Positions 29-63,000 of a stretch of 64,000 bases of DNA are shown one piece after another (position 1 is the stretch's first letter; each line of letters starts with the position of its first letter). The position numbers and the translations under genes were made by a program. The notes below the pieces were generated by a model. It was not told where the DNA came from. It did not search any database and saw only the letters and a list, made by a program, of their open reading frames with translations. The DNA comes from Heterotrichella gracilis (lineage: Eukaryota; Sar; Xanthophyceae; Tribonematales; Xanthonemataceae): positions 124,001-188,000 of the forward strand of contig JAULBX010019965.1 in assembly GCA_032358255.1 (NCBI GenBank). Direction: 5' to 3'.

Positions 29-2937
29 GGTGGGAAATTGAACGAGGCCACCAAGGAAGAGATCGTGGAGGTGGTGCAGCTGGGTGGCCGCGAGGCGCTG
101 TGGTACCGCGTGCAGGGGCCCATCAAGGTGGCGCTCCTGCGGGCCACAACCGCTGATCTGGATGGCAACTGCTCCTTTGAGCACGAGCCACTGTACTGTG
201 ATGCCCTCAGCCAGGTGGGTGACATGCATTCCCGCCATTCAGGAGTGGGTGCAAAGCTGGGTGTCGGGGTGAGGGAAGGTTTACGATGCCTCATGCGTAG
301 AGCCACTGTGATGTGACGCACTTGGCCATTGGATGTAAAGTGGAGGGTTGCAAAAGAAAGCGTAAAATCAGATGGAAGGTGGGAATGGGAATGAGATAAG
401 GATACCTCTTGTTCCATAGTGCAGATGCACTTTTTCAGTTACTGAGGCATCAAATGCGCAGAATGGGCAACTCCCTGGGCAGCACATATCGCTGACGCAG
501 GCCTGTTGCGCAGGCTATGGCGGCGCACAATGCAGGGGGGATTGTGATAGTCCAGGTGAAACGGGTGGTGGAGCGCGGCCACCTGCCAGCCAGGAGTGTG
601 CACATACCTGCGGTGCTTGTGGATAAGGTATGTCCTGCAATTGGGTTTATTCAGCTTGGAAACGAGTGAATGGTGTATGGCTCGCAATTTTTAGGGTTTA
701 TGATTTTTGTCTACCGTATGCATGCAGCTGATGGTCTGCAAGGTGGTGTGCCTCTGCTGTTTCCCCACCGCCCATGTGGTGTCCATGTTGGCTTGAGAAT
801 TTTGAGCAATGTGCACCATAATGCTTCATTACAGGTGGTGGTGGCGCCTCCGGAGTACCACCCTCAAACGTTTGGCAAGGGGGTGCATGATGGGTCACTC
901 AGCGGGGAGATCAGGGGCCCCTCTTCGGCAATTAGGCCCCTGCCATTGGACGAGCGAAAAATCATGGCTCACCGGGCCCTGCTCGAAATCACCAAGCCGA
1001 ACTCTTTGGTCAACCTAGGGGTCGGGGCGCCAGAGGTGGGTAGGACGCTGCCAGGGCTTGGTTTACTGCCTATCAGAATCTGTTTCATGGGTCATATACT
1101 TGTGTGATGTGGGCGCTATTAACGTTCCAACATGGGAAAGCTCAAATTGGCATGGGACACATCCCTTTGCCATAGCTGGTATGCAGTGTCTCAGTTTGAC
1201 TGGTAAGGCAGCAGCCGTTGCTGCATTTGCAGTGCAATGCAACGCTGGAGTGTGGTGATGCCTGCGGGGGTCCTGTGCAACTGCAGAGTGTGTTTATGCA
1301 CTGCAGGGCATTGGGACCCTGGTTGTGACGCACCCCGGCATCAACCCAGTGGCAGCAGGGGCGCATTTGAGCACAGAGGCAGGCATTTTTGGGGGGGTGC
1401 CGCAAATGGGACTGGGATTTGGCACTGCCCGCAACCCACACGCGATCGTGCCCACCTCCACCATGTTGGATTTTTACAACGGGGGCGGGATTGATGTCAC
1501 TTTCCTGGGCATGGCAGAGGTAAATATTCATAATAATTTAGTATCTGAGTTGTGTTGTATGAGCTCCCATCCATTATGCTTATTGCAGCATGCAGTCACT
1601 CAAGAGGTCTGTTGTAGAACTGGAAGCTGCATGACTTTTTTAAAGGTTTAGGGTTCTACTTTGGGTTCAGGGCTAAGGGTTGGTTGTAGGAATGGTAGCT
1701 GCATGGCTCTTGTACCCATTGCTGCCGGCTTTGCACAAGTGTGCATACTGTGCGGCGCAGCAAGGACACGCACCTGCTTGGGTGTGCAACCTCCACCCCT
1801 CAGAGGCTTAATGAAAGGGTTCAGGAGGTCCATGAGGACTTCAATGTACCACCTCCTTGTTGGTTGTTGACACCCACTATTGGTTCAGGTGGACGGAGAC
1901 GGCAACGTAAACGTCAGCCGCTTTGGCCAGCGCATGCCTGGCTGTGGTGGCTTCATAGACATCAGCCAATCAGCTCGCAAGGTGGTCTTCATGGGCACGT
2001 TCACCACAGCGGGGCTCAAGGTGGGGGGGCAAGAGTGTGAGGGTTAGGGTTTAGGGTGTGGGCGAAGTGGTGGTGTTCATGGGCACATTCACAACCGCGC
2101 GGCACAAGGTGAGGGCAAGGGGAGGGGCTGGTGTAAGTGCTAGGGTTTAGGGTTTTGGTGATGCGGTGGTGTTCATGGGCACGTTCACCACTGCAGGGCT
2201 CGAGGTGAGGGGGTGTGGGGAAGGGGGGCGGAAGGGGAGGGTGTGGGGTGATTGCCTTGTGACCCTTTGGCAATGGTACGATGTCATGCATACAAACAGT
2301 CAACAATGAGGCTGAAAGAGCAACAAAATTCAGTAGGTTGTAGACCCGGTAGTGAATGGGTCAACATTGAGTGGGCAATCTAGGCACGCTGCAATCCCTG
2401 CTCCTGAACAGCAAATACAAACCCCACCTGTGGGTGCGCAGGTGGCAGTCCAGGGGGGCAAGCTCACCATCAGCAGTGAGGGGAGGCAAACCAAGTTCCG
2501 GCGGCGGGTACAGGAGAAGACCTTTGCCGCCTCGTCAGCGGGAGACAAGGAGGTCCTGTATGTTACTGAGAGGGCAGTGTTGCGCCTGCTGCCAGGTGAG
2601 GTTGGGTTGTACCGTGGATGTGAACGAAAGCTTGGCAGGCCTTCGGCTAGCAATATTGTCTCCAAATCCCCCTCGCATTGCGTACACAGGAGATGCTGCA
2701 AACGTTTTACCTCCTTTCTTCCTGTCCGGATCTCTTGTCCCCCCCCCCTTCATTTGGCTGAGATCTGCATGTCATTGAGGGGAGATTTGTTTTCTGCTGC
2801 CAGGTGGAGCAGGGCTGGAGCTATCTGAGCTGGCTCCTGGAGTGGATTTGGAGAGGGATGTGTTGTCTCATATGGAGTTCCGCCCGAAAATCTCACCACA
2901 GCTCAAGGTGATGGCAGCAGGCATCTTTTGCCCGTGA
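29..2937 (+). CDS. Acyl-CoA:acetate/propionate CoA-transferase (family I), 3' part
   Basis: The enzyme moves CoA between short-chain acyl-CoAs and free acids. Exons read directly: 29-214, 514-627, 835-1035, 1307-1519, 1889-2020, 2442-2595, 2804-2937, all joining in frame and ending in TGA. The first exon follows a pyrimidine-rich acceptor and already encodes mid-protein sequence ([15 protein letters not shown], then [14 protein letters not shown]), so by comparison with the family about 150 N-terminal residues lie upstream of the window. Exon 1307-1519 carries the catalytic-glutamate segment [10 protein letters not shown] and then [18 protein letters not shown]. The C-terminus [12 protein letters not shown]...GIF matches the family end. 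Between [10 protein letters not shown] (ends 1035) and GIGTLVV (starts 1307) the family normally has about 10-15 more residues (GVAAVAAEEG-like). A small exon near 1190-1260 with an AAAVAA stretch could supply them, but I could not fix its borders. The YdiF/Pct family call is firm; substrate preference is not readable. Confidence 0.88.
2060..2215 (+). repeat. Two extra copies of a CoA-transferase exon edge
   Basis: The last ~40 bases of exon 1889-2020 (encoding [11 protein letters not shown]) plus its donor recur twice in the following intron, near 2069-2110 and 2162-2215. The copies are separated by GGGTTTAGGG-type runs at about 2040-2055 and 2143-2155. The copies lack an evident acceptor, so they look like unused exon-edge duplicates. 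Confidence 0.85.
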
Positions 2938-6800: not shown

Positions 6801-7834
6801 GCATGCGTGTGTGTATCCTTGCCTGCCGTGCGCGCGTGTATGTGCAGCACCGGGTGTGTGTGGAGGGGGTGGCGCCAGAGGGTGGCTCCAGCAGGGGTGG
6901 TCAGCTGCAGGTGGCCGCTGCTGGTGCCAAGCAGCAGCGCAGCACCTGGAGAGGGGTCAGCAAGAAGGGATGAGGGGGTGCTGTTTCTCACAATAGGGAT
7001 CGATTCAACTGTGTGTGATAAAGGAAGTCCTCTGGTGTATCTTGCCGCGGGTGACTGACATGATGGGTATTCTTCGCCGCATGTGCAATGCAATGCTTGA
7101 CATGCAAAACATGATGTGTCAATGGAAACGGCGTTCTTATACCCTTATGATCCTACCCTGGTTGCCACCACCTGGCGTTCAATTTGGTCGGTGCCAGCTT
7201 TGTAATGTTATACTGTACTAAACATCAACCTTCCATGAAATGCTCCAACGTACACGTTATTTACCAAAATGCTTGTGCATGTGAGTGCGCCTACCTTCTA
7301 GCTGCTGTGCAAACACAATCCAGTGGACAGCGGTGATATGCTCTGGGGGGTTGCACACGGTGGCGTGGTGGTGGCGGCAGGGCTCCCGGTGGGAGTCGTA
7401 GGTAAAGACCAACACACTGGAACCCACGCCTACTGCCAGCTGGTTGCTGTGGACAGAATTGGCAGGTTGAGCATGCTGTTCATGACATGAGTTTTTAGCA
7501 CTAGTGAGAGGTTGGCTGGGGGGTTGGGCATGCTCTTGAGGGATGTGTGCCAGGCAACAGGTGTAACGCCACAATTTGCTGAAGGGGCTAGAATTGCAGG
7601 AAAGCCTCTGAAAGAAGGCTTCCGAGCGAGCTCACAGCTTGAGTGGCAGTGGCAAACGTGCATGCATTGGATATGCATGCATGTATGGCATGTACATGTG
7701 CACGGTAACCGCTGGGGAGAGATAGTTCTTCCTTACCCATTTGGATGCAGGGAGAAGCAGACGGGAGGTGAGGGTGAACAAACGGCCCCGTTGTAACCGT
7801 TGCTCAACGCGCTTGTGACAAACGTGGGAGTCAT
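3816..7834 (-). CDS. RAB3GAP2: Rab3 GTPase-activating protein regulatory subunit (RAB3GAP2-like)
   Basis: Non-catalytic partner of RAB3GAP1; in animals the complex regulates Rab3 and Rab18 and acts in membrane traffic and autophagy. Exons in transcription order: 7834-7737, 7446-7295, 6945-6823, 6597-6424, 5922-5792, 5541-5418, 4983-4839, 4583-4328, 4046-3816. They give 477 residues with every junction in phase. The ATG at 7834 has an in-frame TGA just upstream. Matches to the PF14655 N-terminal domain are clear: AVHWIVFAQQLEG then LLLGTSSGHLQLTT (family VGF.SGYVRFYTE), SSVILTVGKGPAVAAFQ, STASALASGLYSRA, LAAAADNLGRVLLIN, and the signature VWKGYRDAQLAWL. The last exon ends soon after the region HLLDLDTG. 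The long C-terminal domain of animal RAB3GAP2 is absent, so the protein is essentially the N-terminal domain. Two introns use GC donors (after 6823 and after 6424). Confidence 0.9.
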
Positions 7835-20223: not shown

Positions 20224-22301
20224 CTATGCTGATGCGGTGAGTTCCTTCTTCAATGCCTGCAAGGCAGCGTGGACGGTATGAAAAACTATATAGTATAGTA
20301 TAGTATGCGCTATGAGAAACCATATGCGCTCCAACCCAGTGTGAAATGGCATTTCCTTGAGCAATCCGCTCTGTTTTCAATCATTCAGACGCCCATCAAC
20401 ATGGTGATGTACGCAGATGGGGAGGCCAGTGATGGAGGTAGTAGCCTCATATGCAAAGCAAGTGTCAGCACAACCCACCTGGAGGCAGGGCGCTTCAGGG
20501 TTCACGCCCGCCAGTGATTGCAACACGTTGCTCATGAAATTGGCGTCATGGATCAGCGCCTGCACCTCCGCAGCAGCTGGCTTGAAAGCAGGCCCCACAG
20601 GCGCCAGCGGCTGCCTCTCATTCCTCCTCCGCCTGCTCAGTACACACAATGCACATCACATCCTTGCCGTGGCCTGTAGAAACTTGCCTAGCAAATCAAC
20701 ATGCATCCACCCATAGCAATTGCACGCCATGCGCTCCTGCTCTGCACAAACACGAGCTGCTGGATGTTTACAGCCGGCCTCTCGTCCCAGCCTGCCACCC
20801 AAGGCAGCACCATGACAAACAATCCGTGGTAAAAGACTATGGGGCGTAGCACCCTTAATTAATGACTTGCGTTTTAGCATAAAAACCAGAACAGCAATCA
20901 GCCGTGCACAAGCTTGTGCCACCCAGCCCTGTCCTGGCATTGTACCCCTTTTGTATGTTCCTTGCCTGCAAATCCTGGCGTGGCACACTGACACAGCCGT
21001 ACCTGCTGCCACTGGCCGAGCCGTGCTGGTGGTCCCTGCCAGGTGGGGACTGGCTCCCATGCAGCGACCGCGACCGCCTCCTTGACGGCCTCCCCCTGCC
21101 CAAGGCACCCCCAGCTCCCGCCTGGGGCATGACAGGGAAGGCCCCGCCCCCCATCAAGTTCATGGGCAACCCCATGTGCATCAGCAGGGCCAGCGGGTTG
21201 CCTGCATTATTGATGAATTGGTTGGAAAAATCCCATGCATCAATTAAATGTGTACAGTATCCTTCAGGGGCACACAAGGCAATTAGCCGATGACAGCTCA
21301 GGATGCCTGGTACACTTCACAAGCCTGTTGCATACATTTGAGCAGTATGCCATATTAGCAGTCAGCACATGCAAACTGGCAACATTTTCACAAGTTTTAC
21401 CTCCATAGCCTGCAGGCACTGGGTAGCCTGCTGGCAAGGGGGGGTACCCTCCGCCAGCCTCTTCCTCATCCCCCTCTTCATCCCCTTCCCCGTAGTAGTC
21501 ATCCCCTGGATGCTCCTCCTCGCCACTGCCCACCTCCTCGTCGCTGCCTGCCTCCTCCCACTCCCCGTAGTTTGAGTCGTCGTGGTCGCTTGTGTAGAAG
21601 CTCTCAGATGGCAGGTCTGGCGCTGCAGCAGCAGTGGAATGACCTTTAGGGTTTGAGTAGCGGTGAAATGACCTTTAGGGTTTGGGTTAGGGTTTTAGGT
21701 CAATTGCAGTCGTCGAGTTCACTGGTGTTACAAACTCTCCGTTGGCAGGTCTGGCGCAACGAACCACTCAATTAGGGTTTGTTAAGGTTAAATCCAACTT
21801 ATGCAGGAGCGGTAATTGAGGGCATTACTACACAGTGCACTAGAAAAGTATGAAGCCCACCCAGGCAGCATGGTGCTGCAGGAAGCCTGTCACTGGGCAG
21901 TGTACACCAACTGTGCGCCCACCCTCAGAGTCGTCCTTGCTGGATTCTGTTGCCAGGGCAGGCAGCAAGTCATCAGCTTCGTCGTTCTGGTTTGCACCAC
22001 CAGGGTTGGCATGGTGTGCTCCTCCTGCGTCTGAGCCTTCGCTGAGGTCCTCCCCGCTGTCACTAGTGTGGTCTTCAATATCAGTGGCCAGTGACGGGAA
22101 GCTGGCGTCATCGTCAGACAGCCCCGGTGGCTCATCGTCAGACGGCAAGCTGGGCATGGTTGGCTCTGAACCATCCAGGTCATCGTCATCGCTGTCTTGT
22201 CCATTCAAGGAGGGTGGGCGGCTGGCCTCCCCATCGGAGGACAACAGGTCTGGCATGCTGACATCGTCAGAGGGATGGTTGGGTCCGTTGGCAAGTGCCA
22301 T
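20224..22301 (-). CDS. Acidic protein with Rpn10-like C-terminal tail, function unknown
   Basis: Exons in order: 22301-21923, 21622-21401, 21201-21003, 20632-20479, 20256-20224; 328 residues, all in phase. Exon 1 is Asp/Ser-rich (e.g. DSDDDDLDGSEPTMPSLPSD). Exon 2 is Glu/Asp/Gly-rich (SFYTSDHDDSNYGEWEEA, GDEEGDEEEAGGGYPPLP). Exon 3 is Met/Gly-rich, then Arg/Ser-rich (RRRSRSLHGS). Exon 4 has a basic RRRRNERQPL and then NFMSNVLQSLAGVNPEAPCL, which resembles the C-terminal FMSxxLxSLPGVDPxDP motif of proteasome subunit Rpn10. No VWA domain is present, so it is not Rpn10 itself. The start is uncertain: the ATG at 22301 sits just inside an apparent acceptor (22307), so an upstream coding exon is possible. 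Asp/Glu runs suggest a nuclear or chaperone-like acidic protein, but this is inference. Confidence 0.7.
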
Positions 22302-24440
22302 TGGTACCTGCAGAGCAAGTTGCTCTGAGCAACAGGCCACTAGCCATGAGTGAGGCCATGAATGCATGGTGCAATGCAAACCCACTTGTCCTACACTCTC
22401 TTGACATTACTGTTTAGGTATACTGCAGCTTGGGTGGGTGAACCGCTGACATACATGAGGCATTATGGGTGACTGCAGGGCATCAAGGCTTTTGATAGGT
22501 GGCAAGGTGTTGTGCTTGGGTGCTGTCACAATAGAACCATGCAGCAACAACCCAACAGGGTACGACAAACACAAAACGACAGTTTGAAAAGGAGCTACAC
22601 AGCTCAACGCTACACAAATCTCACCCAGAAAACCCCAAAGTGGATATACCTTCCAACTTGGCAGGCTAGAATGCTCTTTCTTCCTAGAATTGGTCCTGCG
22701 ACTATCCAACGACGTTTGGCCATTTTGTCACTAGTACTCGCCCACTCGGCAGGCACCGCCCTCACTGCCTGGTCTACACTCGGGCATGACTCGCAGTTTA
22801 GGGACACACCATACCTGGAATGCTTGACTCTGCACGCACAAAAGGCTGTTTTGAAGACCTTGGCCAGCGAGTTGGTACCGATAGTGGACTAGGCTTCTGC
22901 AGCCCAGCACGGCATTGTTGATACTCCTCTAGCGTACCTGCGTACGAAGCCGAATAAAGAGCTATGCGGGTGTACTTTAAAGTCTCGCGTTAACACGGGG
23001 TTTAGCAGTGCACACGTCGTCGTTTGGCATATGCATGCCAATGGCAAACTCCCCGTTCTGTCACAGCCCAACCATCCCCCTGGCAAGGGTTTCAGTGAAG
23101 GGTTTTGGATTTGAACCCATCCCACTCCGTGCGTTGGCGTTTGGCACTCAAGACTCACGTCGATACCTGATACCTGTTCTTCCATTGTCTGCCAGCTGGC
23201 AGCAAAGGAACAGTTTCCATCTGTAGTATGGCCCCCATGCCATGGTTGCAACCCAACTGCCATGCCATGGCCCTGCCGCCCTTTTGAAATATCTATCTAT
23301 CAATGCCATGCCTTGCCAATGCAATGCTCGGAGGTAACTGCAGAACAGCAGCAGCACTTCACCCACACTTTACTATCCTCTTGATCATAAGTTACATGCA
23401 CATCTCCCACCTTTGACAACGAACCTAGCCAGGAGAAAAGGGCAGCCGCGTTGGTGTCCTGAAAACTGGTGTTTTTTTGCTGACTGGTTCATGCCAGCGA
23501 CAGATGTGGAACCATCGAGGTGAACAATAATAACCAAACATGACTGACTGACCATTTCAAGATCCAAACCATTCTCCTAGCCAATGATCAGCAAAGACGA
23601 GCGTGCCAGTGAAATATGTACCCAACAGCGGGTACAAACATGTCACTTTGTTTCACGCATTTATGTCACTGTAATGTTCCAGTCCAGGTCTCCATTCATA
23701 TTGTGCGCGTGGTACCAGAAAGCATTCCAACCCCTAATCCACTACTGAGCACCAATGTCTCAGCCCCCGACTAGAAATGAGGATGGTTGTTGGCGATGGG
23801 AGAAGGCATACCGGTACGAACAATCAACCTCGTTACGTAAAACCCGGCACATTCAACCCCGATACAAAACCACCCGAGGACGCCGGATTACCTTGATGCG
23901 CAAAAAATTCCGCACCAGCAGCACATGCGCACTCTCAACCTCCAACCGTCATGAAACAAAAAGAAGCGCAGGGTGCAACCCTGTGCACCTGTGAGGCAAT
24001 GCTCCTTCTAGTCAATCCTGTACAGGCCTTGCATGCTGCAGGCAGCCACATGTTGTACATTTTTAAAACCCTGATTTTATCGTTAGAAGACAACCATCCC
24101 CTCCCAGGACTTGTGGGAAACCAGCAGTCTGGTATCCAGGGTCTGGATGCAGGCACAATGACTGCATGTCCTGAAATCACCGGCTGCTCCCAAAGTTTGC
24201 CACAAACTACTCAGACACCCCCTTTCCCCCCCTCCCCCATCCGCCCTGACGCCACATGCAGTGCCTCTTCCTCTGCTGTACCAACAGCCCCTTCCCAATC
24301 CCCTCCCCCGTCCTCTCCCTCCCTTAGGGATCCCCTCCATGCACCCCCTTCCCCACCCACTCCTCCACCGCCTGCGCTTGACTGAAAGTCGACCTGCCCT
24401 GCACAGTCCCCAATCTTGCCCCCCTGCCCCCACACACCAC
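22302..24440. other. Intergenic region between two minus-strand genes
   Basis: The proximal part (22302-23000) should hold the 5' region of the acidic-protein gene. The distal part (about 24219-24395) carries degenerate copies of the last exon of the neighbouring coiled-coil gene; for example CTCCTCCACCGCCTGCGC recurs at about 24360 and 24543. No separate gene seen. Confidence 0.5.
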
Positions 24441-40200: not shown

Positions 40201-40802
40201 GATGTGGAAGGAGGCTAGGGAGGCAGGGGACCAGGGCAGCATGGCACAACCAGGTACACTGACCCTGACCCTACACCCTAATGTTACCTTTTGAGACAGC
40301 TTCCTACCAATTGGATTTAGTGCGATTAGTGGCTGGGTTGTACCTGGTCTGTGGCATTGAGAGGAAAAGCTTGGATGTTGTGGAAGCATTGCCAGTGAGA
40401 AGTGTGGAACAGCAGTGTCTACCTTTTGAAAAGATGTTAAATGGCAGTGCAAGGTTGGCATGACTCATTTGAAATGCAAGTGGCAAATTAACGATTGCCA
40501 ATTGGTACAAACATTGATCATTATTTTAGTATGTGCCATTTTGTCTCTGACGAATATGGTGTCAATGCGTATTTCGAATGGTGCAGGTTGCCGCATTGTA
40601 AAGCATAGGATTAAACTTCTATCTGATTTGTTGTACAGGCATTGGGAGCAGCATGGACAAGTTGGAGGACACCAAGGCATGGAGCAAGGTGGAGCAGGTG
40701 CACGGTGAGACTGAGACCCAGACTGTGAGCAAATCAAAGGAGGTGCACACCGAGACACATGAGGATATGGAGGAGCAGCAGAAGCGCGCACTGGCAGCCT
40801 AG
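37207..40802 (+). CDS. Ala/Glu/Lys-rich coiled-coil protein
   Basis: Exons 37207-37530, 37939-38178, 38461-38712, 38953-39221, 39457-39723, 39965-40152 and 40639-40802 give 567 residues, all in phase, ending in TAG. Residues 1-108 are acidic, Thr/Pro-rich and disordered (STVSTTTTYADAPPGTPEEE). Residues ~109-510 are continuous coiled coil with Ala/Glu/Lys heptads (AEEKTKEAKIHAGAAEARDE, AKMEAAEAKGRVADQLVKRG, EARTPTEQAQAQWAEAESHD). The tail is charged (DMEEQQKRALAA). No known domain recognised; composition is reminiscent of LEA-like or striated-fibre/cytoskeletal proteins, but that is a guess. The divergently placed neighbour has the same overall plan (disordered Thr-rich head, coiled-coil body), so they may be ancient paralogues. 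The donor after 38178 sits in GTAGGGTTTAGGG, i.e. a telomere-like run supplies the intron start. Confidence 0.85.
40197..40260 (+). repeat. Copy of an exon 3' edge and donor
   Basis: Repeats the end of exon 39965-40152 (GGCAGGGGACCAGGGCAG at about 40121 and 40222, period 101) including the GTAC donor and CTGACCCT. TAGTTTAGGG and CCTAAACCCT lie between the copies. Confidence 0.9.
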
Positions 40803-43216: not shown

Positions 43217-43495
43217 CGATCTTGCAAACAAGGAAGACTGCCCGACGCACAGCTACAGTACAAGCTAGTGACTGCTACAAATACTGTCTATAGTTATTGC
43301 TGTTCTGTTGAAAGACGGTGTCAGGACAGGGTTTTGGGTTTTAAGGAGCCCATACAAAGGCGCTATCACTGATACACTGATATCAATATCAGACCCATGT
43401 CGTCTCATATAGGCAGCGGTTCCACTGTGAACTTCGCAGTACGCACGTCTGCTACCGGGAAGTGTTGACACTGGGGTACCTATCGCTTGGTCGCG
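43217..43495. promoter_or_regulatory. Short divergent promoter region (ATP23 / SPF45)
   Basis: Only 279 bases separate the two start codons, so a bidirectional promoter is likely. No specific elements identified. Confidence 0.5.
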
Positions 43496-46209
43496 ATGTT
43501 CAGCAGTCTGTATGGCGATTTGCCGCAGGCAAAGAATGTCGATGAGAAGCCAGAAACGGGCAGTGCAGGGTGGAGCATCTCCTCCCGGTTAGCGCCTCCA
43601 GTCAGACGCCCTTCGCTCAACCCACCACCGTCGGTACTGCGGGCGGGCAGAGGCAGAGGCGATGCTGTGCACAGAACTTCGGATGTGGGTGTAGGCCTCG
43701 CCCCCATCCAACCAACGTCCATCTTCAGCTTGAGCGGGCCTCTTCAAGACGAGTATGACCCAGCAAGGCCAAACGACTACGAGAAGATTCGTGCTGAGCG
43801 TGAAAGGATGCGGCGAGGGGCGGAGCTTGAGGCGGAGAGGCAGGAGCGCATGCGGGAGATGGAGCGGGAAAAGGAGCGAGCGGTGGGTGCATATGCATGC
43901 ATATGGAAACTGTGCCGTTTTGGTCCTTTCACGATGCCTCTTCACTTATAATGTGGTGTAAAACTCAATGTGGGATATAGTAGCCTGATTGTAACCATAT
44001 TGGGTTCAACCTCATGCAATGCATGCACGACATGTGGGTAACCAACAACCCCAATGCTGCTTGCCCCAAGTTGCCAAATCACACCAAAAACGGTTCCATC
44101 AGACCGCAGCATACAGCACGTCACTCTCGGTATTTTTGCTGAGTGGGTGTCGCCTCACCTTGAAACTACGACAACCCCATGTTGCCCCATGCATGGACCC
44201 CATCTGCCCCTTGCATGCAGGATCGGGAGCATGAGCGAGAGCAGGAACGGGAGAGGGAGCGGGAAAGGGACAGGGAGCGGGCACAAGAGGAGATTGCCGC
44301 CCGCAGCGGCTCAGACCGGTCTGCACTCAGCGTGAGCGGGGAGGAGGCCTTTGCCCGGAGAGCAAGGTACGCACCCATGGCGCACCACTGTGCACACCTG
44401 TAAAGCGTTTGGCCACTGGGGGTGCCATGAAAAGCACACCACATGTGTGCCATGCACGATTTATCAAGACTGGTCGGGGTAGGGGTGGGGGAGCAACAGG
44501 TTCAGTGGAGTTGGGGGTGCGTGGTGCGCCCAGCCAAACTCCATGCGCGCATCCAGTCGCCCCAAACCACTCCCACTTGCACAATGGTTTTGTTGCCGCT
44601 AAGGATGGCATGGCATGTACATCAGACGCAATGTGGTGCTGACCAAACCATCATGTGGTCGTGCGCAGCTGGACCCTACCTAGGGTTTGAGTGGGCACAT
44701 GTTGCGATTTGCTGTGTGCGAGCCATGGAGGCTGGCGCACACCAGTGTAATCCAGTGTCCTTACGTCTCACAAGATGCTTTGTGATGCTACATAATGCAA
44801 ATAATAATATAATGATAATGATGATGCAGGTTGAGCGGCAAGTCCAGCGGTTTCAGCGACACGCCAGACTGGGACAGCGGGCGGGGCGGCCTGGGGATTG
44901 GCGCTGCCCCCGCGGCCCCCGCAGCAAACGCCGCCAGCTCTGAAAAGGGCATGACCCTTGCCCAGAAGCTGATGCGCAAGATGGGGTGGAAGGATGGGCA
45001 GGGGCTGGGGCGCGAGGGGCAGGGCATCACCACGCCGCTGGTTGCGCAGAAGACCGATGTGCGGGGGGGCGTGATAGTGAATGCGGACGAGCGGCGAGGG
45101 GATGCAGGGCCCCCTGAGAAGAGGCAAAAGGTATAGCTGGCACCTCCCATGGGACTGTAGGGTGTAGGGTTTGATGTTTGGGGTTTTCCTTGAATGCACC
45201 AGATGTTTAGGGTTTCTGACAAAGCACCAGGTGTACCTGTATGGTGGGGTACCTCAGGTCTGGTGTCGTGACAGGATTTTAAAGGCATGCGGTCATGCAC
45301 CATACCCCTGACTTGCATTGATAACCTATCCTAAGGTATTTGGCATGCACCACGCTCAACCCCACGCATGAGCCCTACTGCATCGCCATCATGTACACCC
45401 GCACCACCTGCACCACCACTTCCTTGACATTGCACTGGCGCTAGGCATACCCAGCAATGCTCCCCTGGCGATCAAGCTGGGCGCACATGTACAGGCACTC
45501 ACCCATGCAATGTCCGCAGGGCGTGCCCCTCCAGGGCCCCCCCACCAAGGTAGTGCTGCTGCGCAACATGGTGGGTCCCGGTGAGGTGGATGAGGAGCTT
45601 GAGGATGAGGTGGGCCAGGAGGCGTCAAAGTACGGGGAGGTGCAGCAGGTGAGGCGGGGGGAGGTGTGGTGTGTGCGTGTGTCATGTGTATAGAGAGTGC
45701 AGGTGAGGATGGCGTTGCATGTGTAAAAGGTGCAGCAGGCAAGGGGTATGGGTTGTGGGTTGTGTGGTTGCCTGGGGCCCTGTATTTCCGACTGCAATAC
45801 CTCATTATCGACGTGCCAGCGATCCCTCATTGCACAGTAGACGTGCCGGCAATACCTCACTGTACTGTAGAAGTACAGGGGGGGCAAGGAATATCAGCAT
45901 AACCACCACCACCAGCATCAGTAGCAGCAGCACCACCACCCACCTACCCAAGTCACTGTGGCCGGCCCCTTACCCCCCTACCCCCCCCCCACGCAGGTCC
46001 TCATCTACGAGGTGACCGAGGCAGGCTTCCCCCACGACCAGGCTGTGCGCATCTTTGTGGAGTTTGACCGACAGGAGGCTGCCACCAAGGCGCTCATCGA
46101 CATGCACGGCAGGTTCTTTGGGGGCCGCCAGGTGCAGGCCACCTTCTTCGACCCAGACAGGCTGGAGAGGAACCTGCTGGCACCACAGCCGGGCGAGGTG
46201 GAATCGTAA
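43496..46209 (+). CDS. RBM17: Splicing factor 45 (SPF45/RBM17; plant DRT111)
   Basis: Nuclear second-step and alternative-splicing factor. Exons 43496-43882, 44221-44366, 44830-45130, 45520-45648 and 45997-46209 give 391 residues in phase. The start MFSSLYGDLPQ and the segment PTSIFSLSGPLQDEYDPARP match the family N-terminus. An Arg/Glu-rich region (EREQERERERERDRERAQEE) precedes the G-patch at about residues 219-262 (MTLAQKLMRKMGWKDGQGLG, then GITTPLVAQKT). The C-terminal U2AF-homology motif domain includes VVLLRNMVGPGEVDEELEDE and VRIFVEFDRQEAATKALID. It keeps the UHM Arg-x-Phe signature as HGRFFGGRQVQATFFD. The stop codon TAA lies inside TAAACCCCTTAGGG, a telomere-like run, and the whole tail is copied again downstream. 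Confidence 0.95.
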
Positions 46210-46341
46210 ACCCCTTAGGGTTTTTTGGGAGCCATCAGGTGTAGGCCACATTCTTTGACCCAGACAGGCTGGAGAGGAACCTGCTGGCGCCACCGCCCGA
46301 GGAGGTGGAATCCTAAACCCCTTAGGGTTTTGGGTTTGAGC
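46128..46341 (+). repeat. 107-bp tandem duplication of the SPF45 coding tail, stop and 3' flank
   Basis: ACCCAGACAGGCTGGAGAGG occurs at 46151 and 46258 (period 107). Both copies end GAGGTGGAATC(G/C)TAAACCCC followed by TTAGGGTTT. The second copy lies after the stop and is non-coding. Confidence 0.95.
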
Positions 46342-47210: not shown

Positions 47211-50200
47211 ATGTCCTGGAGTGTGTACACGCGGCAGGCTTTTAAAAAGTGCCCGAGCCACAGAAGAGCGGAAGCTCACACATACAGTTGCACCCTGAAA
47301 ACCCAGCTTGGAGGAAACAACCTCAATACTTCCTGTCACGCCAGCTTTTCACCCACAATGCTGCAGTCCAGACAGCCCTTAGCAGCACCCATCCTAGCTG
47401 CCCACCACCCACCCACCAAAACAGCCCTACTATCCTCCAAACCTCACAACCCCCGCCACATCAGCCACCAAAAGATGACGCCTGGACGCCACCCGGCAGC
47501 AAGCAGGCCACAGCGCGTGTGCCCGCAGGCAGCGCCATCAACATACGCTGAGCCGGATCAGCCACAGCCACAGCCACAGCCACGGCCAGAGGTGGTGGTG
47601 CCAGCGCAGTATCAGCGGCTGGTGGCGCGGCGATGTGGGGGATCCTTCCGTGAGGTTGCTGAGGTGGAGCAGGTGGCCACATCCACACCAGGGCCAGGGG
47701 AGGTGGGTGCACACAACCCTACCCAAACCCCACCCCGAACCCTAAAAGATTGTGTCTTGCTGCAAGCTTGGCTGGACATCTGTGGAACAGTGGGAGCGGG
47801 GGTGTGCAACCCCACCAAACTCTACTTGAGGTGTCACATAGCATGCTTGACTGTACCATTGTGAACACGTTCCCTTGCCGCCATTCGTCCTGCAGTCCAT
47901 TCATCGTGCAGTCCAAGTTCTGGCCATGTGTTAATCTTGCTCGGTTGGGGGCACCTCTTTGGTGTGTGAAGGTGACGCACGAATGCAGATATAGCTGTCA
48001 TTGCATGCTGTGCAGCGCTGCACTTCTCGCTGGGCTGGCATCACTGTCAGCACTGCATAGGGTTAAGGTCATATATTCATCTGAAACCCTAAACACGTCC
48101 CGCTGAGGTGGCATCACTGACAGCACTGCTTTGAGACTGGTCCCTCTCGGATGCTGGTACGGGATTGTGACCTGTGGTGGTGCGGCTGGTGGCGCAGGTC
48201 CTGATCAAGGTGGAGTATGCTGGGATCAATGGAGGGTGCGAGACCTTCAGAGCCAGGGGAGAGCATCTGTAAGTGGTACCAGGCGTCTTGGTTTCAGCAA
48301 CAGCATTCTGGTGCTAGTGGCGAGGCAAATTGGCACTGGGAATACCGTCTTGGTATCAACGGGGGCTGTTGCCACGGTAGATGTGCATGGGGATTGTTGA
48401 GGAATTGCAGGTCCCTGTCACATCCTACCTGCACATGCAGAATACAATGCGTTGTGAATATCATGCCATGCCTCTGGCGGGGGATAGACTTGTGCTATGC
48501 AATACTTTATTGGGTAATATACATGCCCAGTGCGCAGGTTATGCACCTACTGGCTGTGAACATCACTGTTTGAGAGCATTGATCTGTGTGCGCTGTGATT
48601 TCATCAGGCATGTTTGTCGCGCCAGCTGCTTGATGTGATCACATGTGTGCGCTGCATTGTGAACTTGCCACTGGCGGGGATTAGACCTGTGCTATGCATT
48701 ACTTTATTGAGTAATTTACAGGCCGAAGCGCATGCTATGCACCTATTCGCTGCAAAGATTACTAGCATTGTTTTGTGTGCACTGTGTACTGTGATTCCAT
48801 CAGGCAAGTTTGTTGCGCCAGCTGTTTAATCTGATCACATGGGATTCTTATGTGCAGGTTTGCCAAGAATCAGGGCGTTGGCACATTTGCGCTTGGCGCT
48901 GAGGGGTGTGGGGTTGTTGCCGCTGTTGGGCAAGATGTGGCGTCACTGCAGGTACTGCTGGGTGTTTTGGTGCTGGGTACATCTGGGCCACATTTATGCC
49001 CCCTCCCATACACTTAGCGAAATGTCAACCTGCTTTCAACTGAGACTGCTGGGGTTGGGCCAAGTCATGACATGCGACTGGACTCTATGGAATCTATGAG
49101 CCATTAAATTGAATAAAATGTTGCAATATTGCGTTTGCAACACAAATATGCATCTGCAGGTGGGTCAGGCCGTGGCTTTTAACGGCGCCAATGGGTTTGC
49201 AGAGTACGTGACCGCAAAGGCAGCCATGTGTACTCCCGTGCCTGAGGCGACAGCTGGCGTGGCGGCAATCACATTGTCTGGGGTGGTGGCGGCTGCGGCA
49301 CTCAAGGTGAGGGTGGAAGCCTGCACAAAACATGCTGTCAAAACCATTGCAAAGCCGGGTACATACAACCATCAAAGCCTTGTCATAGAGTTCATTGCGG
49401 TATTGCGGTATAGGGCTTGCCACAAAAAAGTTGGATGGGACATCCCTGCAGCTGATACGTCTATACTGCTAGGTTACAGTTTACTGCAAAAATGATAAAC
49501 ATGCAGCCCATATGTAGAATTTGAGCTATTCTGACCAGTTGGACCCTTTGGGGTTGTGGTGCAGGTCACTGCTGGCCTGCAGCCAGGCCAAACAGTGCTG
49601 GTCACAGCAGCAGCTGGCGGTACTGGCCAGTTTGCTGTGCAAGTTGCCAAGGCGATGGGGTGCCATGTGGTTGCCACGTGTGGGGGGCCCAGCAAGGTGG
49701 AGGCGTTGCGTGGGCTGGGGGCTGATCGCATCATCAACTATCGGGAGGAGGTGAGGGGGTGAAACGATTCTATTGCACGCGGCACTGACGTGCACCACTC
49801 TGTGGGATACTTTTGAGGTATAGCTACTGGTATAACGTATATAACAACCGTCTGGTCTTCAAGCTTGCTGAGTCCAAGCCAGCCTTCAGAGGTCCAATCA
49901 AGTTGCTGTTACCTGGGTGCAGCAGCAGTTTTCTGTTATCAGGAAAATTGGCGGAAAGCTGATCATGATATCCACAGATTCAGAGCTTTTGAGTCTTGCA
50001 TGCCATTCCGATGCCACAGCCTTGCACGTAACTTATGCAACTTTTGTGGCGCGGCATTACGCATTGGCCCTGTGTGCAGGACGTGGATACGGTCCTGGCC
50101 AACGAGTACCCCCAAGGGATTGACGTCATCTACGAAGGGGTAGGAGGTCAGCTGCGCAGCACCGCCTTGAGGCACCTGGGGGATCATGGTAAACTGCTGA

Positions 50201-57029: not shown

Positions 57030-60000
57030 ATGGCAGACGGAAAAGCAGGCACAACGCATAGTGTCCCTAGATCGCCAAAGGACCATGTCATCAAGATGGG
57101 CCCTCTGACTCAAAGCCCCACACGAGGAGTCGCTCCACCCCCACAACTGGACCCTATCAACGTGCCAAGTGGGCCTATCCTGACCCCGCAGACCTCCGCT
57201 GCTTCCTACCGACAAGACATCAGTTTCATACCCTCAGGTGGGGCCCCTGGTGGCAAATGACTGTGGTCGGGTGGAGCGGTGCCATGTACAAAAAACATGT
57301 GCATGCACGCTTTGCCCCTGGCTGGAGCTGCAGCAGTGACATACATGAAAGTGCAACGCTTTAAGAGCACCATGGTGTGGTCTGTTCGTGTCGTGGTTGC
57401 TTGTAAACACTGTTAGTCCACTGCAGATGAACTCGAGCTGGAACTCCACCGACGAATAGATACCGAGATTGCAAGCATAAACGAGTCAGGGACTCTCACG
57501 GCTGAGGTAAGTGCAAAGTATTGCGTTATTTCTGGTTCCCAGAAGCCTGTCAGATAGACTGTGTCTTGAGTTTCCTCAAAGGAATCCACTGCCCTAGGGC
57601 ACTAACCTTGGCCCCTGGTTTATCTTTGCGCAGAATCTTGAGCTGGTGAAACAAGTTTTACAGTCTTTCAGTGGAGCCGATGCCAGGTTTGCAGGCGAAC
57701 AAGGTGAGGTTTTGCACCTCCAACCATGACTGGTCCACAGATCATGTGCGGCCACCGCCATTACACTTGGCAGCGGTCAGAATGTCAGCATTTTAGGGTT
57801 TAGGGTGCACAGATCCACCAACACTCCTGCTGCTCCAATGTGGCTTGTGCCATTGGTCCAAGCTGACAGTAACAAACAGCAGAGTAGGCCAGAGCCTTAA
57901 CTCCGGGTGTCAACGGGTGGGAACTCTCCATCCCCATGTACCCACAGTCGTGAGCGACCTGCAGGGGAACAAGTGGGCAGCCCGAGGGGTGAGAACGGGG
58001 TACTGCACGCCTCAGACAGGCCTGCTACCGCTGGCATTGCCAAGTTCAAACACCTGCTGAGGAAACGACAATCCAAGGCGAGTCGGTGGTTCTCCGTGCC
58101 AAACCCTACACTAAGGGTTTTGTGATGGCAGGATGAGGCCGAAGTGCACCTGGTGCTAGCTGCCATGATGCAAGTCTGGCATTCGCGTTTTCACTCCGAA
58201 GATTGTTGAAATGAAGTCATGCTGCATGCCAAATTGCCCTCCGAACTGAGTGTGCGCCACATCCACCCTCAGAGTGTGCGTCATGGCATCACCATGCCTC
58301 CCAAAAGCATTTTGTCATGTTTGTCGTCGCGCCACATCCACCCTCTCTACACAAGGGCTGAGGACCTGTGCTCTAGGACTTCATGGTATTGGCGTCGAAC
58401 CGCTGTGGCGACCGCCTTCACACACGCTACCGTCACACACGCTGCATGACATTCACATACATATGACATGCACATACCCTCACACCTCGCTTCCTGCCCA
58501 CCAGGATATCACGAAGCCTCCCACCAACCACCAAGTGGGAGACGACCACCAGCCCATCCTGCCCTCACCCTCGGAGCCATCAGAAGGCAAGCCCCCTGTT
58601 CCCAATGGCAAGGCACCGGGTCCCAATGGTTCGGTCCCCACCCCGCGCCCCTCTCACAAGCCCTCCCCCTTGTCTGCCATCGGGGAATGCCCCACTGAGG
58701 AGGGCAAAGAGGCCAGGGAGGTGGACGACGTGATCACGGTATGGTCGGTGGTTTTGCTGTAAACATGATTCTGCGATGATTGGAGGTGCCCCATAGAAGC
58801 GTGAAGTTCCAAGCGTAACAAGTAACAAGATCCAACCATGGCATATGAATGCAACCAAAACTACAAACAAATATTCATAACTGTACTGCCAGTCAGGCCT
58901 GTAGCTGTGTTTGCCATCCAACCATTGCCATTTCATGATGCACCCACCTTGATCCTCCTTGCTGATCCGACTACCAGATGGAGGACTTGGATGACGAGGA
59001 CGACGATTACGACGACGATCTGGCGGGCATGATCAAGCGCAAGATGGGGCGGCGCAAGTTCTGGGTGACCGCTACGCCCATACTGGTGTCGGTGGCGTTC
59101 CTGGCAGCGGGGCTGTCACTGCTGCTCACAGATTCCAATGCGGTAGGGCCCTGCAGAATAAAACCCTAAACCCTAAACCCTCAATGGTTTCGGTGGCGTT
59201 CCTGGCTGCGGGGATGTCGCTGCTGCTCACCGGGTCCAATGCGGTAGGGCCCTGCATAACAAAACCCTAAACCTAAATGCAGTGAGGTGTGGCTCTGACT
59301 CAGGGCCAAACTCAGGGCCTTTGATTAGCAAACCACAAACTGCAAATGGTGCTGGTGCAGCCACCCATGGGGATAGTCATTGAATAAGTATTCCGCCATG
59401 TCCAGAGCAGGCACCCCAAACCCTACGCCGCAGAGCTGACTCCAGTGCGCGCTGTGGCCCTGGTTCCTGCTGCTTGCCTCCCTGGCGCACTGGCTATTGC
59501 CCATGCTATCATCAACCCTCAACCCCAAACCCTGTCTCCCAAGACCCACAGAGCTGGCTTGATTACGCGCTGTGGCGCTACTCCCGCTGGTTGCCTCACT
59601 GGCGCACTGGCTATTGTCCTTGCTGTCATCAACCCTGAAACCTGAACCCTGTGTTGTCCCATGCCCCGCGGGGCTGGCTCGACTACGCGCTGTGGCGCTG
59701 GTTCCTGCTGTTTGCCTCCCTGGCGCACTGGCTATTGCCCGTGCTGTAATAAACCCTAAACCTAACCCTGTCTCCCATGCGCCGCAGGGCTGGCTCGACT
59801 ACGCGCTGTGGCGCTGGTTCCTGCTGTTTGCCTCGGTGGTGCCTGTGTACTGGCTGGGCACCCTGCTCACGTGGGTGCTGTCCAGGTTCATTGAGTGGCA
59901 GTTCTTCACAAACAACAAGGTGGTCTACTTCATGTACTCAACAAGGGTAAGTCTCCTGTTGTGGGTCGTTTCTAGTGGTGATTTTACTGTGTGTTTACTG

Positions 60001-63000
60001 TGTGTTTTACTGTGTTTTACTTATCATGCGGAGGACAAGGTTCAGCCTTTGTAGATAAGAACGGCTGGATATGGTAGGAGGAGGTCCCTGTGCCCTAATT
60101 TGCAAACAGCACGCTCCACCCCAAGGTACTCTGTGCAGACACACGCTGCGCGCGCTTTCATCTCACTGCTTTAGTCTGCCCCTGTCACCGCCTGTCAGCA
60201 GAACCATCGACACTTCCCATCATCATCTCAAACCCCAGCACTTGATTGCCCAAAAATGCCCCCCTTATGCATTGCAGAAACGCAAAGCACGCCTTGATCC
60301 CCATGCTCCTCCTGCCCCTGCCTGCTTAAACCAACACCCTAAACCCTACCTGTTACCCCTAAAATGCGCCCATTGTGCATTGCAGAAACACATTGCGCGC
60401 GTGTTCATCTCGGCGCTGTTCCTGCCCCTGTTTGCTGGCCTCATGTCCAAGCCGGTCAACTCGGAGGACACAAGCTACAAAAACGTGCACAGGATCTGTC
60501 TGCAGGTGAGCGCCACGACCTGAGCCCTTGAGCCGGTCCCTCGCCCTTAATGCACATGTCCTCAAGAAAACCCCCTTCAAATGGTCAATCAAATGATCAA
60601 CAATTGCCCCTGCTTCCTTCGTACCATCAACCCTGCATCAAGTCAGCATCGAAGACCTACCAGCCCTCAGAATTCCATTTGCATCCGGTCTCGATTTCAT
60701 CGCTAATCTGCTCACTACCTTCAAGTTATCAGCATTGCCTGTGGCTGGCCCTCCCCTTCCACCCCTGGCCCGTAGACCTTTTGTCAGATCACTTACATTT
60801 ACATCCCCCATTTCCACTTTCAGTTCACCTTCATTGTATCCCTGAGGCTCTCTTACCCCCCACCCTCTTTAGATCATCGGCATCATCACCCTTTTCTTTA
60901 CCGCCAACCTGCTCAAGACCTTCATTGCCAAGGCGGTGGGGCTGCACTTCCACAAGGAGACATTCTTCATAAAGATCAAGCAGGCGCTCAGGCAGGTGAG
61001 TGCTCATTGGTATGTGCACCACAAAGATCAAGCAGGCGCTCAGGCAGATGAGTGATTATTGGAATTTGCATCACAAAGGACAAACAGGCGTTCATGCAGG
61101 TGAGTGAATATTGAAATTTGCGTCACAAAGGACAAAGAGGCACTCAGGCAGGAGAGGGATTATTTGCATCACAACCCTCGACACGCAGTGCCATCTGTGC
61201 AATTTCCACAAATTCAAGCTAGAAATTCTGGCCAATGGAAGCATCTGCATTTTGACACTAAGCGGGAGTCGGACTTGGTTGAATTTTTTGGTGGGCTGTA
61301 TGTGCGTGAATGGATTCATCCGGCCCATATCAGTGCTTTGACCCACCAGCAGCGGGATGGGATCACCAGCTTGCATACAGCCAATAAGGAGTCTCACCCA
61401 AAGCCACCGCTGGCTGGGTGCTGCATTACAGCTGTCAGGGTGTGGGGGTAGGGGGTGGTGGGTCAAGCGCGCGGGGGATGCATCATGTACAGTCACTCAG
61501 GAGCGTGTGAAACAATGGTTGGTATTGCATGGCCTTCAAGTGAATATTTCTCTATGCCCATTACCAATGGACCTCTACGCCTCTTACCGATGAGTCACGA
61601 CAATTATGAATGTGTTGTGGCTGTGCCCCAGGAATATTTCCTCCACGTGCTTGCACAGCCCCGGCCCCATGACTTCCCCCAGCCGGATGTCTCATATGAC
61701 GAGTCCATGGACGAGGGGAGCGCACACCCCAAGCAGAGCAAAAAGGTGGGCCTGCAACTATATGTGCACCTTACATTGAATGGTGGGAACAATCTTTGTA
61801 TCGCATGAGTATGGGTGCAAATATCACAATGACATTTCCCCCCTCACCTTGGAACTCCTCCAGACAGGCCATTTTGTTAGGCAACACACTCAGATGAGTG
61901 CGCCCCCATGGTGTTGTAGACCTATGTATACCTATGTGTTGTACTATATGTTGTATAGACTCTGCAGCCCTGGCGATGATGTGGGCTTGATGGGCATCGC
62001 TGCCCCCTACATCAAGCATGAGTACATAAACATGTGATCTTGTTTTCTCAAAGGTAAAAGCTGTTCCCGCGGCTGAAACAGGAGAAAGTAGGTGCCCGTT
62101 TCCACATCCATACAGCCTATGCATGCATACGAGTACATTCACGATTTGCAGCTCAGCAGGCTGGTCTCCCTGCATTGCCTCTCCAAATCTTAGTTGTGGC
62201 CAGTGCACCCTCTTGGTCTCTCTAGGCACGATGGTGCCAACATGGATACGATAAGGCAATTCCCCACAACTCGGTCTTCTGTCCACAGCGTAGCCCCCCT
62301 CTATTTCATTTTCAGTGTTTGTTACAGGTATTACTATTGAATGAAATGACTTTTTCCCCTCTCTATTCCGCGGCGCCCGATGAAATGTTTTCCACCTCCG
62401 TCTGCAGCTCAGCACGCTGGCCTACCTGGGCCTGCGCCCCTCCAAGTCTGTTCAGGACCTCAACCCGCCAGAGGGCTCAAGGCTGGCCTCGCCCTTCGAC
62501 ACCAAGCCAGTGCCAGGTGGCGGTGGCCCACCCCCTACCGAGCCCCCAACCCTCACCCACCTGGCTCGCCCCAGCAAGCGCCACCTCAGCAACGAGACAT
62601 CAGAGGCCATGCAGGTGTGCACACCCACACATCGCACCGCGTATCACCAGTCCACCCGCAGCCAAAAAAAGTCGAGAAATGAATAAATATTGTAGCACCC
62701 TTGACGGGGCACCCCCTCCCCTCCACACATGGGATTCGTGGCTGTTTTTCGTAGTGGCTGTGTGCATGTTAGCTATTGGCATTTTCATTTTCTTACTTTT
62801 TGTCAAAGCCGGCGTTTTATGCATACATGCGGCAAATATCTGATACTAAAGCAGACATCATGTTTGTTTCATTTTCACTCTTTCCAGGTTTTCTGCTGTC
62901 TGTTAATGCCGCTGTCCAAGTTCACTATGTGTATTATCTTTCTCCTTTTCCTTCCTGCAGGAGGCCATGGAGCTTGCTGAGCGCACCAGGGAGCATGACC

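What the first reader, a model, noticed from the sequence alone, without database searches (positions are those of the whole stretch)
1880..61160. Recurrent duplication of exon edges with telomere-like spacers across unrelated genes
In at least six genes here (CoA-transferase, both coiled-coil genes, SPF45, the MSL channel, and more weakly RAB3GAP2), the 40-120 bases at an exon edge, with its splice site, are copied one to several times into the adjacent intron or 3' flank. The copies are often separated by CCCTAAA/TTTAGGG runs of 1-4 units. Both acceptor-side and donor-side edges are affected. This looks like a single genome-wide process, for example break repair with telomere-type repeat addition plus templated re-copying, or an RNA/cDNA-linked event at splice sites. 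It would also be a steady source of alternative exons. I know of no standard element class that fits.
Basis: partly seen in the sequence, partly recalled or inferred. Interest (0 to 1): 0.85.

Follow-up and report, generated by a model that had tools for sequence, protein, structure and literature searches.

The report
Telomere-flecked duplications at exon edges
In this algal-looking DNA, short pieces at the ends of exons have been copied into the neighbouring intron, often beside scraps of telomere-type sequence; this most likely reflects ordinary small duplications from DNA repair that survive where they do no harm, not a new mechanism aimed at splice sites.

Summary
I count 24 local direct-repeat clusters in 64 kb; 15 span an exon edge, 13 on a donor or acceptor side. 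AAACCCT leads all 1,172 tandem 7-base units (131 11-mers against 11 for the next). Two details fail: RAB3GAP2 shows no such repeat, and the SPF45 case copies the end of the coding region, not a splice site.

A single process aimed at exon edges is not established. Geometry alone predicts 7.9 edge clusters of 24 (P 0.0015); allowing edge copies to stay recognisable 1.5 or 2 times longer predicts 9.9 or 11.4 (P 0.02, 0.09). Telomere-like runs coincide with clusters about 2.3-fold above chance (P about 0.02, runs masked first); homopolymers do nearly as well. Runs outside clusters mostly lack flanking duplication and, within introns, sit no nearer splice sites than chance. Whether extra copies were ever coding is unclear: 4 of 16 carry stops, yet 7 of 10 loci show low dN/dS.

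Best reading: ordinary short tandem duplications from break repair or template switching, tolerated across exon edges because one splice site still works, with short interstitial telomeric runs as breakpoint or filler in a subset. No second genome could be compared.

The parts
1889..2020 (+). CoA-transferase exon whose donor-side edge (1981-2020 plus donor) is copied
   Evidence: Protein homology to YdiF across the exon and the next one, with no counterpart of the extra copy; gene model
2021..2264 (+). Intron start holding two extra copies (about 2069-2117, 2165-2213) with TTTAGGG runs at 2044-2057 and 2141-2155
21575..21757 (-). Unnamed gene: start of exon 21401-21622 copied upstream (homology begins one base before the exon); AAACCCT runs at 21645-21654 and 21674-21683 in the spacer
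24222..24573 (-). Minus-strand coiled-coil gene: doubtful low-identity (69%) duplication at the end of exon 24453-24705
26458..26761 (-). Coiled-coil gene: acceptor-side edge of exon 26400-26522 copied upstream, no telomere run
28352..28655 (-). Coiled-coil gene: donor-side edge of exon 28615-28738 (weak model) copied 218 bp away, no telomere run between copies
28907..30868 (-). Coiled-coil gene: several decayed copies of a donor-side exon edge, interspersed with four CCCTAAA runs (28930, 29452, 29939, 30090)
30857..31150 (-). Coiled-coil gene: acceptor-side edge of exon 30761-30967 copied upstream
31397..31866 (-). Three copies of a small exon region at 200-bp spacing, kept in the predicted protein
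32391..32736 (-). Coiled-coil gene: donor-side edge repeated
40093..40266 (+). Plus-strand coiled-coil gene: donor-side edge of exon 39965-40152 copied; TTTAGGG then CCCTAAA filler at 40167-40192
46112..46331 (+). SPF45-like gene: last coding bases, stop codon and a degenerate AAACCCCTTAGGGTTT copied into the 3' flank; no splice site
   Evidence: SPF45 homology
48021..48129 (+). Intron-only 36-bp duplication with telomere-like spacer (non-edge case)
59072..59277 (+). MSL-like gene: donor-side edge copied once; CCCTAAA run at the intron end of both copies
59426..59842 (+). MSL-like gene: acceptor-side edge present four times (three intronic copies plus the exon), with degenerate CCCTAAA at the start of each unit
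   Evidence: homology near the exon start to FLYC1
60249..60436 (+). MSL-like gene: acceptor-side edge copied upstream; CCCTAAA run 60336-60348 in the spacer
60967..61174 (+). MSL-like gene: donor-side edge in four copies of 52 bp with no telomere-like sequence between them
24741..25393 (.). 135-bp minisatellite, about five copies, inside an intron; comparison case without exon edge or telomere run

Best explanation
These are ordinary small tandem duplications (units of about 50 to 220 bp) made by break repair or template switching anywhere in the genes. A duplication wholly inside a coding exon is removed by selection. One wholly inside an intron is neutral and decays at both copies. One across an exon edge is tolerated, because the copy next to the exon body still gives a working splice site and the extra copies become intron; its exon partner is partly held still by selection, so the duplication stays recognisable longer. 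Independently, short AAACCCT runs (interstitial telomeric sequence) are common in introns of this genome. They act as breakpoints, or are added as filler, in a subset of the duplications. Shown here: the duplications, the runs and their modest co-occurrence. Suggested but not settled: that the copies decay without coding constraint. Inferred: the repair mechanism, the role of telomerase or of the runs as fragile sites, and the survival bias.
For: 15 of 24 clusters span an edge; expected 7.9 from geometry, 9.9 to 11.4 with 1.5- to 2-fold longer detectability, 13.6 with 3-fold. Counting only the 13 splice-side clusters gives P 0.019, and 0.32 at 2-fold. Nine of 24 clusters touch no edge. No run lies in a coding exon (0 of 32); 31 of 32 lie in annotated introns, with strand use 16 against 15. 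15 of 32 runs lie outside clusters and as a group have no flanking duplication (Mann-Whitney P 0.22). At 40093, 59072, 59426 and 46112 the outer flank also scores as telomere-like (P 0.028-0.049), so there the unit ends at the run. 4 of 16 copies hold in-frame stops and pooled dN/dS is 0.35 (bootstrap 0.21-0.60). Mammalian short interstitial telomeric runs are inserted at double-strand breaks, sometimes with direct duplication of the target (PMC7215372, passages and section 2.5; PMC2246262, two passages). Small tandem duplications arise at breaks with 3' overhangs by CST-Pol alpha fill-in (PMC8355091, passages).
Against: For the 20 BLAST-detected clusters the edge excess stays nominally significant at two-fold detectability (15 of 20 against 10.7, P 0.036; 9.3 and P 0.008 at 1.5-fold; P 0.17 at 3-fold). 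dN/dS is 0.11-0.25 at 7 of 10 loci with a value (1981, 21575, 26458, 28352, 30857, 46112, 59072) and 0.46-1.04 at three (40093, 60967, 59426); I expect roughly 0.55 for a constrained exon against a neutral copy, so some copies may have been under coding constraint. Two of the 15 runs outside clusters (1645, 17011) have flank similarity above the 95th percentile of controls, 1645 above the 99th. 26 of 27 collapsed runs are intronic where 66% of non-coding DNA is (P 0.0002), which plain random insertion does not predict; my intergenic class is small and poorly annotated.
Confidence: 0.6

Rival explanations
1. One coupled event: a break in a transcribed gene leaves 3' overhangs; telomerase adds TTTAGGG to an end and CST-Pol alpha fills in the other strand, so the overhang sequence is kept on both sides. 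The result is X - telomere run - X, and repeated events give several copies. (Overlaps with the best explanation for a subset of loci.)
For: Co-occurrence of runs and duplications. At 1981 and 60249 only the junction scores as telomere-like (P 0.017), and at 48021 it nearly does (P 0.052), while the outer flanks do not. All three pairs of opposite runs closer than 200 bp stand in the order TTTAGGG then CCCTAAA (28750/28930, 40167/40182, 52850/53024; positions), the order expected if both broken ends were extended and joined. Each half of the mechanism is documented elsewhere (PMC8355091, PMC7215372; passages seen).
Against: 15 of 32 runs lie outside clusters, as a group without flanking duplication. 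Eight of the 15 edge clusters hold no exact run of 10 nt (24222, 26458, 28352, 30857, 31397, 32391, 46112, 60967). At four loci the run belongs to both copies, so it is at least as old as the last duplication. Three pairs in one order is weak (1 in 4 for all alike).
Confidence: 0.2
2. Pre-existing intronic telomeric runs are fragile and cause slippage or fork stalling, so duplications end at them; runs come first, duplications later. (Overlaps with the best explanation for a subset of loci.)
For: The run, or a relic, sits at the outer end of both copies at 40093, 59072, 59426 and 46112. Runs are common in introns.
Against: Homopolymers of 7 or more show a similar association (5 of 18 clusters against 2.1, P 0.048), so the effect may be a general one of simple repeats. 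At 1981 and 48021 the outer flank has no run.
Confidence: 0.3
3. A process directed at splice sites (RNA- or cDNA-linked, or reverse splicing) copies exon edges.
For: Edge share above the geometric expectation (15 of 24 against 7.9, P 0.0015).
Against: In the copies read in sequence (28352, 40093, 59072, 59426, 60249) intron sequence beyond the splice site is copied too, so no spliced template was used. Runs have no sense bias. The stop-codon end of SPF45 is also duplicated. The excess shrinks once detectability is allowed for.
Confidence: 0.05
4. The extra copies are, or were, alternative exons or alternative splice sites kept for function.
For: dN/dS is 0.11-0.25 at 7 of 10 loci with a value. 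Extra donors keep GT in 6 of 8 copies read (1981 two of two, 28352, 40093, 59072 one of one each, 60967 one of three; sequence). The 31397-31866 exon copies stay in the predicted protein.
Against: 4 of 16 copies have in-frame stops and 5 of 16 have gaps; per-locus codon-position counts do not differ significantly from one another (P 0.19); one of three extra acceptors at 59426 and two of three extra donors at 60967 are lost.
Confidence: 0.12

Closest known systems
Short interstitial telomeric sequences inserted at double-strand breaks (primates, rodents, horse)
   Same: Short runs of the telomeric unit inside chromosomes; a minority in mammals come with direct duplication of flanking sequence (PMC7215372 section 2.5; PMC2246262, two passages)
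   Different: Here the local density is high (32 runs in 64 kb), nearly all are intronic, duplications are often multi-copy, and no empty orthologous site could be shown
Small tandem duplications from staggered breaks with CST-Pol alpha fill-in
   Same: Local direct duplications without dispersal
   Different: PMC8355091 (passages seen) describes duplications at induced breaks in mouse and human cells; telomeric filler was not among the passages that I saw
Intron turnover by tandem duplication of exonic sequence (Drosophila near intron pairs; potato RdRp)
   Same: Tandem duplication that includes a splice site or proto-splice site, with one copy becoming intron (PMC2891723 abstract and one section; PMC4974935 search listing only)
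   Different: Those create or move introns; here existing introns appear to be lengthened
Plant telo boxes
   Same: AAACCCTA motifs dispersed in genes, with telomerase at free 3' ends proposed as source (PMC3022908, passages)
   Different: Telo boxes are enriched in 5' regions and less frequent in Arabidopsis introns; here runs are intronic

Membership tests
Interstitial telomeric sequence | Tandem units of the telomeric repeat, far above chance | tested here: met
   32 runs of at least 10 nt against 0.35 in 20 shuffles; AAACCCT first of 1,172 units. That TTTAGGG is this organism's telomere repeat is recalled from plants and many algae, not shown
Interstitial telomeric sequence | One-step insertion shown by an empty orthologous site | not testable with these tools
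   No relative found in viral contigs with two window proteins and no own genome held
Small tandem duplication from staggered breaks | Adjacent direct copies, not dispersed | tested here: met
   40 of 41 self-BLAST rows lie within 1.5 kb; the one long-range row is a telomere run
Small tandem duplication from staggered breaks | Dependence on CST/Pol alpha or end joining | not testable with these tools
   Needs experiment
Introner element or other transposon | Similar copies at many unlinked introns | tested here: not met
   Within this window only: no repeat at E <= 1e-3 shared between different genes apart from telomere runs; terminal inverted repeats were not searched
Intron gain by tandem genomic duplication | New intron created inside a former exon | tested here: inconclusive
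   CoA-transferase and MSL-like joins align to homologues without inserted residues once the copy is left out; ages of the introns unknown
Alternative exon | Copy open in frame and under coding constraint | tested here: inconclusive
   Pooled dN/dS 0.35 (0.21-0.60), 7 of 10 loci at or below 0.25; 4 of 16 copies with stops
Process targeted to exon edges | Duplications at edges beyond geometry, selection and detectability | tested here: inconclusive
   15 of 24 against 7.9, 9.9 or 11.4, P 0.0015, 0.02, 0.09; 15 of 20 against 7.5, 9.3 or 10.7, P 0.0006, 0.008, 0.036

The most novel reading that the evidence does not exclude
In this lineage the chromosome-end machinery (telomerase plus CST-Pol alpha) routinely works on breaks inside transcribed genes, so each repair leaves a telomeric run together with a duplicated flank. 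Over time this is a main source of intron growth and of spare splice sites, concentrated at exon edges.
Probability: 0.12. Interest if true: 0.65.

Novelty: new member of a known kind. Interest (0 to 1): 0.36.

Why it matters
If only the ordinary reading holds, the window is a clear example of how exon edges collect spare copies, a route to longer introns and a trap for gene prediction (my own predictor called several copies as exons). If the coupled telomere-repair reading holds, a genome dense in such scars would let one study telomerase action at internal breaks from sequence alone.

Tried and rejected

SPF45 and CHY-RING proteins found no relative in viral contigs.

RNA- or splicing-linked origin: rejected as main reading, since runs have no sense bias and the copies read in sequence keep intron sequence. 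A donor-side TTTAGGG / acceptor-side CCCTAAA orientation rule looked likely by eye and vanished in the collapsed count (Fisher P 0.41). Splice-site proximity of runs (8 of 26 within 25 nt against 3.2-3.5, P 0.008-0.018; 10 of 26 within 40 nt against 5.0-5.5, P 0.01-0.03; 11 of 26 within 60 nt, P 0.07-0.14) comes from runs inside clusters; outside them it is 3, 4 and 5 of 14 against 1.9, 2.9 and 4.3. Transposon or introner: rejected for this window.

Controls for the run-cluster association, runs masked, E <= 1e-3: homopolymers 5 of 18 clusters (P 0.048) and 7 of 20 sites (P 0.018); dinucleotide repeats 1 of 18 (P 0.60); GGG/CCC pairs 8 of 18 clusters (P 0.52) but 30 of 120 sites (P 0.014).

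Papers looked into without use: PMC8469720 (stwintrons, passages), PMC6549138 (Chlamydomonas telomeres, passages), PMC12636532 (Auxenochlorella, passages).

Failed or superseded scripts: the first gene-finder settings gave 530 introns and were replaced. The script printed the subset edge tests and then stopped with an error before the codon counts were complete; one search used wrong frames for two exons; only one search is used for codon counts. Rows dropped and choices made by hand: I left out very small exons, predicted exons that are duplicate copies (among them 2151-2204, 24324-24398, 26720-26755, 32437-32583, 46245-46304), and weak predicted genes (5832-6973, 9069-11112, 29391-30617, and the plus-strand model 31211-35652); I kept the three 31397-31866 copies and exon 28615-28738 and set the last CoA-transferase exon by eye. 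To the 20 clusters that I merged from the BLAST rows I added the four TRF arrays with units of 30 bases or more that BLAST had missed (9706, 27506, 45810, 63174); shorter-unit arrays were left out. The codon counts leave out four edge clusters (24222, 28907, 31397, 32391).
Full report
What the window is. The window is nuclear-type DNA of an intron-rich eukaryote, 47-59% GC by 2-kb step; no genome is held for it. A small gene finder trained on the window (refined) with Pfam or PDB matches gives: a CoA-transferase (29-2938; YdiF homologue), RAB3GAP2 (minus, 3816-7446), a CHY/RING protein, a Mad3/BUB1 region followed by a protein kinase (two models that I take as one Mps1-like gene), an acidic protein without Pfam match (minus), two genes facing away from each other that look coiled-coil (minus 24453-35625, not scanned; plus 37207-40802, no Pfam match), a Peptidase M76 (minus), SPF45, a zinc-binding dehydrogenase family protein, a protein at 51896-55449 without Pfam match, and an MSL-like channel (no Pfam match; FLYC1 and MSL10 in PDB). 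The curated model has 93 exons, 81 introns (median 282 nt) and 16.9 kb of coding sequence. The lineage was not established; green-alga-like is an inference from the telomere-type unit and the plant-type channel.

The repeats. Self-BLAST at E <= 1e-3 gives 41 rows, 40 of them within 1.5 kb. I merged them into 20 clusters and added the four TRF arrays with units of 30 bases or more that BLAST had missed, making 24. Fifteen span an exon edge: 13 a donor or acceptor side, one a whole small exon, one the stop-codon end of SPF45. One of the 15 (24222) is weak. In the loci that I read base by base (1981, 40093, 59072, 59426, 60249, 60967) the copy next to the exon body keeps the splice site that the model or homologue requires, and the extra copies lie on the intron side.

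Is the edge excess real? That null is unfair in one direction. An exon partner evolves slowly at two of three codon positions, so an edge duplication should stay recognisable longer than an intron-only one. A 1.5-fold longer life gives 9.9 expected (P 0.02), two-fold 11.4 (P 0.09), three-fold 13.6 (P 0.34). For the 20 BLAST clusters the figures are 7.5, 9.3 and 10.7 against 15 (P 0.0006, 0.008, 0.036). Counting only splice-side edges: 13 of 24, P 0.019 at equal and 0.32 at two-fold life; dropping the two doubtful clusters as well, 12 of 18 BLAST clusters, P 0.007 and 0.15; outside the minus-strand coiled-coil gene, all edges, 8 of 14, P 0.010 and 0.13. The life ratio is my assumption. So a real edge preference is possible but is not shown.

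The telomere-like runs. AAACCCT is the leading tandem 7-mer by a factor of 12 (131 overlapping 11-mers, in 28 runs of at least 11 nt). There are 32 exact runs of at least 10 nt: none in coding exons, 31 in annotated introns, one just past the dehydrogenase stop codon. Orientation relative to the gene is 16 TTTAGGG and 15 CCCTAAA. Nine clusters hold a run where 3.3 to 3.7 are expected from circular shifts (P 0.002 to 0.006). When runs are masked before clusters are detected, 7 of 18 are hit against about 3 (P 0.016 to 0.025); at E <= 1e-5, 6 of 17 (P 0.05 to 0.06). Homopolymers, taken as a control, give 5 of 18 against 2.1 (P 0.048). The 15 runs outside clusters, as a group, have no flanking duplication above background (P 0.22), though two of them exceed the 95th percentile of controls. 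They lie nearer exon edges than random non-coding positions (median 80 against 157, P 0.004), but that null includes long intergenic stretches; within introns there is no excess near splice sites (4 of 14 within 40 nt against 2.9). Runs and duplications are therefore associated but separable.

Which came first? I scored telomere-likeness of the junction and of the outer, ancestral flank against 60-nt non-coding windows (segment lengths differ, so P is approximate). At 40093, 59072 and 59426 junction and outer flank both score (P below 0.05); at 46112 the outer flank scores and the junction nearly does (0.059). There the run is at least as old as the last duplication. At 1981 and 60249 only the junction scores (0.017), and at 48021 it nearly does (0.052), as expected if the run was added as filler; at 60249 the outer flank may hold a decayed run (my reading of the sequence, not significant). 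At 21575 the junction scores (0.010) and the outer flank nearly does (0.059). At 26458, 28352, 30857 and 60967 there is no run. No single order fits all loci.

Fate of the copies. Across 16 copies of 11 edge clusters, differences from the exon fall 25, 30 and 54 at codon positions 1, 2 and 3; pooled dN/dS is 0.35 (bootstrap 0.21 to 0.60); four copies carry in-frame stops and five carry gaps. By my estimate an exon under normal constraint with a neutral copy gives about 0.55, and two constrained copies 0.1 to 0.2. Seven of ten loci with a value lie at 0.11 to 0.25 and three at 0.46 to 1.04; the codon-position counts do not differ significantly between loci (P 0.19). The stops favour neutral decay, the low values leave room for past coding use in some.

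Mechanism. Steps shown: local duplication, retention of the inner splice site in the loci read, telomere-like runs at some breakpoints. Steps inferred: the breaks, the repair route, and survival by selection. Known processes suffice. Mammalian interstitial telomeric runs are inserted at breaks, occasionally with direct target duplications and head-to-head runs (PMC7215372; PMC2246262). Small tandem duplications come from 3'-overhang breaks filled in by CST-Pol alpha, the telomere fill-in complex (PMC8355091). A model of telomerase adding single units at free 3' ends in transcribed plant genes has been proposed for telo boxes (PMC3022908). Tandem duplication with one copy becoming intron is described in Drosophila (PMC2891723). 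Nine text searches, read as listings of at most 20 papers each, showed no paper on exon-edge duplications with telomeric spacers; subscription journals are mostly missing from that library.

Verdict. A real pattern, most of it ordinary: short tandem duplications seen through a survival filter, in a region rich in short interstitial telomeric runs. The association of runs with duplications is the part worth testing genome-wide.

Noticed in passing
24741-25393: Intronic minisatellite of about five 135-bp copies, 91% alike, close to but not over an exon edge, without telomere run.
   Followed up: partly
26851-27493: Tandem duplication of about 321 bp, 98% alike, so probably young; part of it (27010-27147 against 27330-27467) also matches in inverted orientation at 77%.
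   Followed up: no
31397-31866: Three copies of a small exon region at 200-bp spacing, retained as coding repeats in the predicted coiled-coil protein.
   Followed up: partly
28750-28948, 40167-40192, 52850-53039: All three pairs of oppositely oriented telomere-like runs closer than 200 bp stand in the order TTTAGGG then CCCTAAA.
   Followed up: no
21645, 28750, 59750, 60336: The four runs within 40 nt of an acceptor are all CCCTAAA in the gene's sense, and could supply a branch-site-like CTAAA/CTAAC (branch consensus recalled); four cases only.
   Followed up: no
46200-46235: A near-palindrome AAACCCCTTAGGGTTT directly at the SPF45 stop codon, present after both copies.
   Followed up: no
L083 381-536, L039 4885-5290, L086 1852-1986: Metagenome contigs titled Bacteroidales carry dense arrays of AAACCCT-type heptamers; if the contigs are truly bacterial, the unit also arises without telomerase.
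   Followed up: partly
11942-18568: A Mad3/BUB1 homology region and a protein kinase in adjacent models, probably one Mps1-like gene.
   Followed up: no
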